Source: Varunaivibrio sulfuroxidans (lineage in GTDB: Bacteria; Pseudomonadota; Alphaproteobacteria; Rhodospirillales; Magnetovibrionaceae). From it: 64,000 nt of DNA. Location of the stretch: NCBI RefSeq assembly GCF_029318635.1, contig NZ_CP119676.1, positions 2,307,001-2,371,000 of the forward strand, written 5' to 3'. This document shows, in pieces, positions 52,034 to 56,970 of the stretch (position 1 is its first letter; every line of letters begins with the position of its first letter). Below the pieces are notes generated by a model that was given only the letters and a program-made list of their open reading frames with translations, was not told the origin of the DNA and did not search any database. The position numbers and the translations under genes are program-made.

Positions 52034-52717
52034 ATGACCGGTCTTGGGGGGCAGGTCAGCCTGTATCCATGCTTCTACTGACTGTTTAATAGTCTCGTTT
52101 TTCGTAACGATACAGTCAATAAATTTCAATGGAACCTGATCTTTCACCATAAACTCTGCCATGCGTTTTGTGCTGCGATTACTGTGTTCTGGCGGATTGT
52201 CACGATCAAAAAAATACCTACAAACGCCATTATAACTGATCTCAGGAATCGTGGCTACAGTTGGTGTTTCGTCAAATAATGACCATTCCACATGGCTCTG
52301 AAGTTCTGAAAAGTCATTTTTATACTCAGGCACCATAGCGCCTGAATTGCATGCAACATCTGTAAACCAAAAGGGTAATGCAGCATTTTGAAAATGTGAT
52401 GTGTGTGAAACCATAAAAATAACGTCATCCATATTTGCGACACCGACCTTAGTTCCCGACGGGTCTCGCAGTGGGACATTTTCCTTACTGATTGTATGTG
52501 CCATGGATGTCCTCGGCGAAAAATAGAATGGCACATAATCGTTAACAACATCTCCAGCGGGTGTCCGGTACACCGTGCCACGCTTGTTGACGATGTTTTC
52601 GTATGAAATCTGGTATCCAGGCTGCGTACGAAAATTTTTTGCGTGAATCGCACCATCCTGCAGAATCCGTTCTACATTCTGGAAGTGCATCATCCTGAAA
52701 ATGTGCCGGTCCGTCAT
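51953..52717 (-). CDS. darT: DarT-like (DUF4433) DNA ADP-ribosyltransferase, C-terminus fused into IS
   Basis: The first ~219 codons (52717 to 52060) encode a DarT-like protein: HIFRMMHFQNVERILQDGAI at the start, the family stretch YVPFYFSPRTSM with Arg69, and Glu188 in KRMAEFMVKDQVPLKF, placed as the catalytic Glu. DarT attaches ADP-ribose to thymidine of single-stranded DNA, blocking replication, and is normally neutralised by the macrodomain protein DarG. After Gln219 the frame enters the right end of the second IS and gains ~35 foreign residues. Length to the junction is near that of known DarTs, so activity may survive. The ATG overlaps the restriction enzyme stop by 4 bp (ATGA). No darG is present. 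The family call is good; toxicity is inferred. Confidence 0.82.
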   Translation of the reverse strand: MTDRHIFRMMHFQNVERILQDGAIHAKNFRTQPGYQISYENIVNKRGTVYRTPAGDVVNDYVPFYFSPRTSMAHTISKENVPLRDPSGTKVGVANMDDVIFMVSHTSHFQNAALPFWFTDVACNSGAMVPEYKNDFSELQSHVEWSLFDETPTVATIPEISYNGVCRYFFDRDNPPEHSNRSTKRMAEFMVKDQVPLKFIDCIVTKNETIKQSVEAWIQADLPPKTGHSRREFRRMVNIFWGGCHVIRGMPLMT

Positions 52718-55700: not shown

Positions 55701-56970
55701 AATTGATCCACTTACGTTCGCCCTTTTCGTCATGGCGAGAAAGGGCGTCAATTGCGGGGGCCAAAATAGAATCGGGTAGGCCCGCGCGGTTTAACATTGG
55801 TGTCCGAGAAGCACTGAATAAGCCACCGTTATAAGGTGGGATGCCGATGGACGCGTCGCCTTCATTAATAGACGCGAAAAGGCCTTTCAGGTGATCCCAA
55901 TAGATGGTGCGCTTGTCTGAAAATTGGTCTTTGTCATCTATGCGCTTGGCGATATCCATACGCACTTTGTCGCGCATGCCGTAATCGTCATAGCGCTTGG
56001 ACTTCACAGGCAGAAGGTTGCGGTCTTCAGCATAGAGGACGAAGAGTAGGCGGTAGAGCAAGATTAGGGTGGCTTGTTTTACCTCATCCAAATATTGCGG
56101 GGTTATCGGGTTAGGGGCTTGCGGGTCGTTAGCGGCAAGGCCAGCGGCCAAGGATGGAAAGACGTTGCCGAATACAAGCCCAGACAGGCTCTCGGCGACC
56201 TTGCGCTCCCATAGGAGCCCTTCTGCCATCGCTATTTGATGGAAGGTTTGTTCGCCAGCCCCATCGGGGAGGAAAGAAGCCCGACGGAACATGATGTAGA
56301 AGACTTTTAGCCAATGATCCTGCACCTCGGGCTCTAAGGCCAGTAGGTCATCGCCGATACCCTCGACACCAAGTATGTAGGGCAGGTCTATATCGAGGAA
56401 GTCTTCGGAGCGTGATTTAGCTTTTTGATAATAGATGCGCCAATTGCGCCCGTTGGTCAGCATGCCCCAGAGAATACGGCCCTCTGAATGAACTTCTGAA
56501 ACCGTTAGGTAGCGCAGGATTTGAGTCGAAGGCGCACTTTGCGCGAGATCGACTAAGTCTTGGTCGCTTCCGTGTTTGCCCTTGCGATCCAGCGGTATTT
56601 GCCACGCCTTGTTTTCAGCAACGACAAGGCCATGCATGAATTTTTTGGCGGACTGGGCCTCGCTGTTCGCTGTGGTCTTGGCTTCTGCATCTTTAAATAG
56701 GAGCGCGTCGGGGACGTCTGAGCGGCCTTTTTTCGCTGCCGTGATTTGAGTTAGAAAGTGATCCCAGTCCAGCGCTTTAAGGACAGGAAAAATCAAGTCG
56801 TTTTCAGTTGTAGACTCGTTTGGCTTTTCACCTGTGGGGAACGCTTTAAAGATATCGGTGAGATTCGTCTTGAACGCAGAGAGCGCAGCATCATCCACGG
56901 CCTTCCAGGCCTCGGTATCGCGGATACCTTCTACTAAGAAATCTTTTGTGAATAACGCGCCTAGAAACAC
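52714..56970 (-). CDS. Single-chain restriction-modification enzyme (PD-(D/E)XK plus Eco57I-type methylase)
   Basis: 1418 residues. The N-terminal ~130 look like a PD-(D/E)XK nuclease: ENDLIFPVLKALDWD, then PD at 87-88 (SDVPDALLF) and E119-x-K121 in VVAENKAWQ. The N6-adenine methylase core begins ~460 (GSGSYYTPDDLVQL), SAM motif ICDPAMGSGHFLV (~530) and catalytic NPPW in AIIGNPPWDRMK (~858). The C-terminal third would supply target recognition. This is the layout of type IIG/IIL enzymes that cut and methylate with one polypeptide. No BREX genes surround it, so PglX is unlikely. Codon use is poorer in GC than its neighbours. It is translationally coupled to darT downstream. Confidence 0.88.
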   Translation of the reverse strand: MFLGALFTKDFLVEGIRDTEAWKAVDDAALSAFKTNLTDIFKAFPTGEKPNESTTENDLIFPVLKALDWDHFLTQITAAKKGRSDVPDALLFKDAEAKTTANSEAQSAKKFMHGLVVAENKAWQIPLDRKGKHGSDQDLVDLAQSAPSTQILRYLTVSEVHSEGRILWGMLTNGRNWRIYYQKAKSRSEDFLDIDLPYILGVEGIGDDLLALEPEVQDHWLKVFYIMFRRASFLPDGAGEQTFHQIAMAEGLLWERKVAESLSGLVFGNVFPSLAAGLAANDPQAPNPITPQYLDEVKQATLILLYRLLFVLYAEDRNLLPVKSKRYDDYGMRDKVRMDIAKRIDDKDQFSDKRTIYWDHLKGLFASINEGDASIGIPPYNGGLFSASRTPMLNRAGLPDSILAPAIDALSRHDEKGERKWINYRDLRVQQLGSIYERLLEFELGFNEDGKVEVRPNIFARKGSGSYYTPDDLVQLVIERTVSPLINECRDHFRDKAEELKSGKGSKKERLKTLQDLDPASAILNLRICDPAMGSGHFLVTLVDYLSSAILEAITEAEHVVDWADDDALYASPLSERIETLREHIFVQAEANTWTVEDEHLDDRQLVRRIILKRVVHGVDFNPMAVELAKVSLWLHTFTVGAPLSYLDHHLRCGNSLFGEDIRDVMDELSKRFKLLINPYVAQAKAASAGMKTVGNLSDVDIGEVKTSAAAFEQVLDDTKHLSAVLSLRQALRWMGMHDLTKKKLPFALEAIFDGSLVAQAKNKATKSKQKMDFVHMVTAGFPLHDDGEQPDLTVAKTKKGSSVGVKQADVLKNAARILGRAKELTKEQHFFHWQTAFPDIWDNWESAEVTGGFDAIIGNPPWDRMKLQEVEWFAERRPEIAHQAKAADRKKMVKVLEKAGDPLYGDYLIAADRAESAAQVARKCGHYPLLSGGDINLYSLFVERAQKLVKPTGIVGLLVPSGIASDKGASAFFKTIATKGRLSALLDFENKKVFFPDVHASFKFCALIAGGNERKFEQAECAFFLHSIAEIETAAFGLQPSDFAAVNPNTGTAPIFRTRRDADLTTAIYARVPVLVDRRKTPPKTVWPVKYTTMFHMTNDSDKFHTLSELEENGCYKVGANRWKKGEDEFEPVYEGKMVQAYDHRAANIVVNLENLNRPAQPESATTEQHADPAWLPNPQYWVSSNDIDWPEDLSFAIAFKDVTAPTNVRTMIAAIIPSSGVGNTLPLLLPPLPDIPEDEDLIAPWEKQVAEAVCAYKENSFVLVANLNAMAFDYIARQKVQGQHLNSYIVEQLPVLPDAAYSHKVGKTTARDIVREEVLKLTYTATDMEPFARDMGYEGDPFVWDEDERRHSRARLDALFFILYGISREDADYILSTFPIVKKQDMAEHDRYLTRDLILAYMAAFEAGYADTRVAP

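What the first reader, a model, noticed from the sequence alone, without database searches (positions are those of the whole stretch)
52060..56970. DarT-like toxin gene translationally coupled to a single-chain restriction enzyme, no DarG
A DUF4433/DarT-type ADP-ribosyltransferase starts inside the stop (ATGA overlap) of a 1418-residue protein that combines a likely PD-(D/E)XK nuclease with an Eco57I-type methylase. In known DarTG systems DarT is paired with the macrodomain antitoxin DarG. Coupling to a restriction enzyme suggests a two-layer defence in which damage or single-stranded ends made by the nuclease could expose substrate for DarT. That mechanism is inference.
Basis: partly seen in the sequence, partly recalled or inferred. 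Interest (0 to 1): 0.72.

Follow-up and report, generated by a model that had tools for sequence, protein, structure and literature searches.

The report
Restriction enzyme with broken DarTG toxin
A bacterial restriction-enzyme gene overlaps a gene for a DarT-type DNA-modifying toxin, but a jumping gene cuts off the toxin's end and no antidote gene of the usual kind was found in the genome, so this is most likely a decayed defence module and not a new antidote-free one.

Summary
In detail: a 1418-residue type IIG restriction-methylase gene (52714-56970, -) shares ATGA with a DarT reading frame, and no DarG was found in window or genome. The likely cause is mundane. An IS3-family-like element (50818-52059) sits inside darT: codons 1-219 are real, the last 34 or so are read from the IS, and IS scraps lie where darG would be expected, without matching target duplications. 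In 18 of 18 named relatives opened (40-54% identity), and in order-level genome G119, darG directly follows darT. The one macro protein found in this one-contig genome is not DarG-like beyond the shared domain. So 'DarT without DarG' is best read as erosion of an ordinary DarTG2 module. Coupling to a type IIG enzyme is real but rare: G119 carries IIG-DarT-DarG; 0 of the 18 named relatives have an overlapping IIG. Published work already reports DarTG in type I restriction operons. One by-product deserves follow-up: in 7 of 24 readable relatives of this IIG the next gene starts -4 to +18 nt from its stop, and those genes differ (DarT-DarG, SIR2+HerA, PLD twice, HEPN, HATPase, unknown), suggesting a slot for exchangeable effectors. 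The four best-scoring darT relatives (54-82%) could not be read in context.

The parts
52714..56970 (-). Type IIG restriction-modification enzyme, 1418 aa: N-terminal PD-(D/E)XK-like nuclease, N6-adenine methylase, variable C-terminal region
52061..52717 (-). Remaining part of darT, codons 1-219; its ATG overlaps the IIG stop (ATGA); putative catalytic Glu188 retained
51953..52060 (-). Tail of the darT reading frame read from the IS element (about 34 codons), in place of the C-terminal segment of about 16 residues seen in relatives
50818..52059 (+). IS-B, IS3-family-like element (rve transposase ORF 51146-52033) with perfect 16-nt terminal inverted repeats, inserted in darT; no matching target duplication at its ends
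50611..50817 (-). IS debris: 50719-50798 is a 70% inverted match of 80 nt to the IS-B transposase gene
49434..50610 (+). IS-A, second IS3-family-like element (ORFs 49465-49752 and 49746-50585); approximate bounds from imperfect inverted ends 49434-49458 and 50586-50610
49005..49433 (+). 5' part of an amidoligase-like gene (PF12224), cut by IS-A
58058..59068 (+). Tyrosine integrase (336 aa), 71% identical to the integrase beside the IIG of G005: mobile-island signature
57822..58163 (+). Small ORF (113 aa) before the integrase, 68% identical to its counterpart in G005; no family hit
59108..59184 (-). tRNA-Arg(CCG), 3' end facing the integrase: likely attachment site; no second copy found in the window

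Best explanation
A type IIG restriction-modification gene without interruption overlaps by four bases a darT gene that an IS3-family-like element interrupts after codon 219, and the darG antitoxin that follows darT in the close relatives read was not found in this genome, likely lost in an IS-associated deletion, so the DarTG half is predicted to be dead and the restriction enzyme would act alone. Shown: the overlap, the IS inside darT, the IS debris beyond it, the lack of matching target duplications, no DarG-type protein found in the genome, and darG directly after darT in relatives. Inferred: that darG was once present here; that darT was broken no later than darG was lost (active DarT without DarG stops growth of E. 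coli in published work); that the truncated DarT is inactive. In the intact form (G119: IIG-DarT-DarG), the IIG enzyme would methylate self DNA and cut unmethylated phage DNA; DarT, held and reversed by DarG, would ADP-ribosylate thymidines in single-stranded DNA when phage replication upsets the balance; translational coupling would tie the second layer's expression to the first.
For: IS-B has perfect 16-nt inverted ends, one of them inside darT. The darT frame is open for 219 codons up to the IS edge and stops 34 or so codons inside the IS. P0002 (82% identical) is 16 residues longer than those 219 codons, and this C-terminal segment is conserved in relatives; the AF2 model's pLDDT falls to 30-61 from residue 221 on. 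The flanks of IS-B do not match each other, and IS debris adjoins it, as expected after deletion. darG directly follows darT in 11 of 11 loci of the genome-contig scan, in 7 of 7 plasmid records opened out of 30 matched, and in G119. In the class survey 16 of 19 other genomes with a DarT-family match have a DarG-like ORF within 1.5 kb. The own genome (one contig, 98.3% complete) has one protein matching the Macro family: 235 aa, macro domain 71-183, beside an ORF that I recognise from memory as inorganic pyrophosphatase, with no phmmer match to three DarGs. A DarG query and NADAR found nothing there. Published: DarT-expressing E. [quoted passage not shown] A complete IS-B occurs once in the genome, which makes a repeat-driven misassembly unlikely.
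Against: The four best-scoring darT relatives (P0002 82%, P0003 65%, P0004 59%, P0005 54%) lie on contigs whose DNA I could not read, so a darG-less IIG-coupled sublineage is not excluded. Three of 19 class-survey genomes (G221, G323, G494; 57-89 bits, distant DarT-like) show no DarG-like ORF within 1.5 kb. No darG fragment survives in the window, so its former presence is inferred. The IS removes only a short C-terminal segment and Glu188 is kept, so residual activity is possible; the AF2 model even places a low-confidence strand (238-241) in the IS-encoded tail. One search came back empty without a positive control in the same genome; with another program (tblastn) the same kind of query scores E<=1e-76 on a known darG locus.
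Confidence: 0.85

Rival explanations
1. The truncated DarT is still active and is held in check by the IIG enzyme itself, as PrrC is by its type I enzyme: a guard toxin released when a phage inhibits restriction. No DarG would be needed.
For: ATGA coupling; open frame up to the IS; catalytic Glu188 kept; some related IIG genes are followed by other toxin-like genes (SIR2, HEPN, PLD); the PrrC precedent and the hypothesis that immunity components act as antitoxins (PMC3506569, passages).
Against: darT is interrupted and the conserved C-terminal segment is gone; G119, the one relative read with an IIG directly before darT, still carries DarG; 18 of 18 named relatives opened keep DarG.
Confidence: 0.06
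2. In this IIG-linked lineage darT never had a darG; the IS merely landed at the end of a DarT that works without DarG.
For: No darG trace found in window or genome; the closest relatives could not be read in context; P0002 (DarT, 82%) and P0017 (IIG, 79%) share source and longest contig length 8254, so they probably sit together, and no DarG with that contig length appeared among the best 120 of 8000 scored.
Confidence: 0.06
3. DarT is active and the other macro protein of the genome (C1:1908561-1908899) removes the mark in place of DarG.
For: It has a full macro domain; a Streptomyces macro hydrolase is reported to cleave thymidine-linked ADP-ribose (PMC9411070, title and abstract start in the listing).
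Against: No phmmer match to three DarGs, and about 52 residues after the macro domain, too few for DarG's DarT-binding part; far from darT in the genome; darT is truncated.
Confidence: 0.02
4. The join of darT to the IS is an assembly error and an intact darTG exists in the organism.
For: IS ends are typical break points; reads are not available.
Against: Single-contig assembly; the complete IS-B is unique in the genome; no DarG found elsewhere in it.
Confidence: 0.01

Closest known systems
DarTG2 toxin-antitoxin systems (Jankevicius 2016, PMC5179494; DarT2/macro class in PMC11543638)
   Different: darT is cut by an IS and darG was not found; the gene overlaps a type IIG restriction gene
[quoted passage not shown]
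   Same: DarTG physically tied to a DNA restriction-modification operon
   Different: Here a single-chain type IIG enzyme, with darT's ATG overlapping its stop
Type IIG restriction-modification enzymes (BpuSI, DrdV in the PDB)
   Same: Nuclease and N6-adenine methylase on one chain; BpuSI and DrdV are second and third in the structural list of the N-terminal model
   Different: Longer (1418 aa); followed by a toxin gene
PrrC with the PrrI type I system, and the immunity-suicide coupling idea (PMC3506569, passages)
   Same: A toxin gene coupled to a restriction system; several toxin kinds replace one another next to such systems
   Different: PrrC is held by the restriction complex; the darT relatives read have a dedicated antitoxin, and this darT is broken
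DISARM DrmMI methylase
   Same: PADLOC DrmMI models match almost as well as IIG models (238 vs 242 bits)
   Different: 10 larger neighbouring ORFs scanned gave no PADLOC hit, so no DISARM partners were seen

Membership tests
DarTG2 toxin-antitoxin system | DarT domain/fold | tested here: met
DarTG2 toxin-antitoxin system | Conserved catalytic glutamate (E160 of Taq DarT, PMC5179494) | tested here: met
   E188 invariant in A1 and A2 and aligned with an Ala in chain 7omv; that this Ala is the E160A change is recalled
DarTG2 toxin-antitoxin system | Complete toxin gene | tested here: not met
   IS-B cuts the frame after codon 219; conserved C-terminal segment absent
DarTG2 toxin-antitoxin system | Adjacent macro-domain antitoxin DarG | tested here: not met
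   None in the window and none found in the genome
DarTG1 toxin-antitoxin system | NADAR antitoxin | tested here: not met
   PF08719: no match in own genome (rings in 3 of 14 control genomes)
Type IIG restriction-modification enzyme | N6-adenine methylase on the same chain | tested here: met
   Eco57I PF07669 E 3.2e-23; DPAMGSG and NPPW motifs in A4 (motif roles recalled)
Type IIG restriction-modification enzyme | PD-(D/E)XK nuclease domain at the N terminus | tested here: met
Type IIG restriction-modification enzyme | C-terminal target recognition domain | tested here: inconclusive
   C-terminal half holds the variable blocks of A4; no specificity-domain family hit in the window protein
Type IIG restriction-modification enzyme | Cutting and methylation activity | not testable with these tools
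   needs the protein
DISARM | drmA/drmB/drmC partner genes | tested here: not met
   No PADLOC hit at E<=1e-4 in 10 chosen larger ORFs between 41.8 and 63.3 kb; smaller ORFs there were not scanned
PrrC-like guard toxin of a restriction system | Toxin kept latent by the restriction enzyme | not testable with these tools
   needs co-expression and phage tests

The most novel reading that the evidence does not exclude
This type IIG family carries a slot at its stop codon into which unrelated toxic effectors are exchanged (DarT-DarG, SIR2-HerA, HEPN, PLD nuclease, HATPase), and the restriction enzyme is the common sensor that arms them and, in forms without their own antidote, restrains them; the window catches one such cassette in the act of being lost.
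Probability: 0.13. Interest if true: 0.68.

Novelty: new variant of a known kind. Interest (0 to 1): 0.33.

Why it matters
It removes a claim that would have been striking (a DarT with no antidote, tied to a restriction enzyme) and replaces it with an ordinary likely cause, an IS. It also adds a type IIG version (best seen in G119) to the known linkage of DarTG with type I restriction operons, and points to a IIG family whose 3' neighbour is, in 7 of the 24 cases read, a tightly spaced and changing gene, most often effector-like. If that slot is functional, it makes the old question of whether restriction enzymes directly control coupled suicide toxins testable with one host enzyme family and several effectors.

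Tried and rejected
Rejected: chance ORF (DarT and IIG family scores are far beyond chance). Rejected: DarT1/NADAR type (no NADAR; structure nearer DarT2). Rejected: DISARM membership. Rejected: darG elsewhere in the window or genome.

Led nowhere: a second copy of the tRNA-Arg 3' end to define the island's far end (none in the window); darT relatives in viral contigs with P0002 as query (none confirmed); IIG in viral contigs gave two close relatives, L152 and L153, with no coupled gene; the AraC-type neighbour searched in 30 other genomes did not define the insertion site; the contig-length match sought for P0002's darG did not appear in the best 120 of 8000 scored DarG-like proteins; G970's contig ends before the IIG gene does, and G417 gave no C-terminal match.

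Not claimed: that tight spacing after the IIG gene is commoner than for any same-strand gene pair; no null was run. The 24 relatives behind '7 of 24' are those with a IIG match of about 38-83% identity over the matched parts and a readable 3' side: G005, G119, G120, G056, G040, G946, G201, G165, G284, G283, G383, G420, G408, G485, G346, seven plasmid records (L119-L125) and L152, L153. 'Coupled' means a same-strand ORF of 100 codons or more starting -4 to +18 nt from the stop. Left out: G417, G970, G213 (partial match), the more distant matches, and plasmid hits not opened (H33, H39, H40 and weaker ones).

Papers: PMC5179494, PMC11543638 and PMC3506569 were read as passages only; all others were seen only in search listings. 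Searches bearing on a IIG-DarT operon: 31 papers, 15 listed; 21, 15 listed; DarT + 'type IIG' + restriction enzyme: 1, a Lactococcus plasmidome, not opened; 5; 3; 3; 3. No listed title or abstract start reports one; unlisted papers and bodies were not read, and the library holds open-licence PMC papers only.

Full report

An element of 1242 bases with perfect 16-nt inverted ends and an rve transposase ORF occupies 50818-52059; the name IS3 family is from memory. Its right end lies inside darT: 219 complete darT codons precede it, and the frame then runs 34 or so codons into the IS before stopping. Homologues carry a conserved C-terminal segment of about 16 residues that this copy lacks. The bases on the two sides of the element do not match as a target duplication would. 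On its far side lies a fragment similar to its own transposase gene, then a second element (about 49434-50610), then an amidoligase-like gene cut at about 49433. No darG sequence was found beyond the IS: 13 DarG queries give only one chance-level hit in the window (E 0.012, 27.6 kb), against E<=1e-76 for all 13 on a known darG locus.

Is the lack of darG original? In relatives of this darT subfamily, darG starts -61 to +20 nt from the darT stop in 11 of 11 loci from the genome-contig scan (starts are those of the longest ORF). It is annotated directly downstream in 7 of 7 plasmid records that I opened out of 30 matched. The order-level genome G119 has IIG (1371 aa), DarT (234 aa as the longest ORF) and DarG (353 aa, Macro 3.2e-23) in a row, the nearest in-frame darT ATG 2 nt after the IIG stop. 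In a class sample of 385 genomes, 20 have a DarT-family match; of the 19 other than this one, 16 have a DarG-like ORF within 1.5 kb and 3 distant ones (57-89 bits) do not. The own genome (one contig, 98.3% complete) has one Macro-family match, a protein of 235 aa at C1:1908561-1908899 without phmmer match to three DarGs, no match to a DarG query (no positive control in that genome), and no NADAR. Expressed DarT stops E. coli growth unless DarG is present (PMC5179494, passages). So the simplest history is an intact DarTG module, an IS in darT, and IS-associated loss of the DNA beyond, darG included. The order of events is inferred. The four best-scoring darT relatives (P0002-P0005, 54-82%) could not be read in context.

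Is IIG-DarT coupling a system? Rarely. Of the 18 named darT relatives, 17 show no IIG-like gene in the stretch held (1.4 to 7 kb before darT) and one (L042, Terasakiella) has an IIG-like gene that ends about 1.1 kb before darT. None of the 19 class-sample genomes shows this IIG within 1.5 kb. G119 has the pair with DarG, but its DarT is only 30% identical to the window's, so the pairing may have arisen more than once. One further case is inferred: P0002 (DarT, 82%) and P0017 (IIG, 79%) come from the same source and both have a contig of 8254 bases.

A wider pattern. In 24 relatives of the IIG (about 38-83% identity over the matched parts) with a readable 3' side, the next gene is on the same strand and starts -4 to +18 nt from the IIG stop in 7: G119 DarT-DarG (+2); Tabrizicola SIR2 (-4) followed by HerA; Celeribacter HATPase (-4); G284 HEPN with TPR (0); Sinorhizobium M103 PLD-like (+3) followed by a TIR gene; Pannonibacter PLD-like (+6); Novosphingobium unknown (+18). 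The PLD matches are below Pfam's cut-off (25-26 of 27 bits) and so is the HATPase match (25 of 26.4). In the other 17 it is not. In G005 (IIG 83% identical, integrase 71% identical, hence the same kind of island) a SIR2 and a HerA gene lie near the IIG on the other strand. The set resembles the 'repeated toxin displacement' described for restriction systems (PMC3506569, passages). I ran no null for spacing, so this is a lead.

Setting. A tyrosine integrase (58058-59068) ends about 40 bases from the 3' end of tRNA-Arg (59108-59184), a usual island signature (recalled); darT's GC is 0.43 against 0.62 for 30-48 kb. The island's far end was not found.

How it would work. Intact form (inferred): the IIG enzyme marks self DNA and cuts unmarked DNA; DarT is a second layer that modifies thymidine in single-stranded DNA of a replicating phage, and DarG restrains and reverses it; coupling sets their ratio and helps them move together. 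An alternative use, stabilising the restriction locus, is discussed for type I operons in PMC5179494. In this genome: restriction-modification only, with a truncated DarT that is likely inactive.

Verdict. Observation confirmed; the antidote-free reading is most likely an effect of IS erosion. DarTG linked to restriction operons is known; for the type IIG version the listings of my searches (partly capped) showed no report.

Noticed in passing
window 57160-57800: Repeat-rich intergenic stretch between the IIG gene and the integrase: five near copies of CCTTAGCTAAGG and several inverted TCCTGGAAAATCC/GGATTTTCCAGGA motifs; perhaps binding sites of an island regulator.
   Followed up: no
L119, L120, L122, L123, L125, L135, L022: The gene tightly behind this IIG family differs between relatives: PLD-like (two), unknown, HATPase-like, SIR2+HerA, HEPN, DarT-DarG; 7 of 24 readable relatives.
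   Followed up: partly
L021 (G005): Same kind of island (integrase 71%, IIG 83% identical) carries SIR2 and HerA genes near the IIG and no DarT was found there.
   Followed up: partly
G000:C1:1576906-1577189: A short element made of the two ends of IS-B (87% and 79% identical), MITE-like.
   Followed up: no
alignment A4, blocks after the NPPW motif and in the C-terminal half: P0017 and P0018 differ sharply from the window protein in blocks between well conserved stretches, as if specificity regions had been exchanged.
   Followed up: no
L067/L077 (G153): darT split in two reading frames (169 and 56 aa) with darG still present: another decaying or frameshifted DarTG.
   Followed up: no
window 49005-49433: Amidoligase_2-like gene, about 143 codons left, cut by IS-A.
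   Followed up: no
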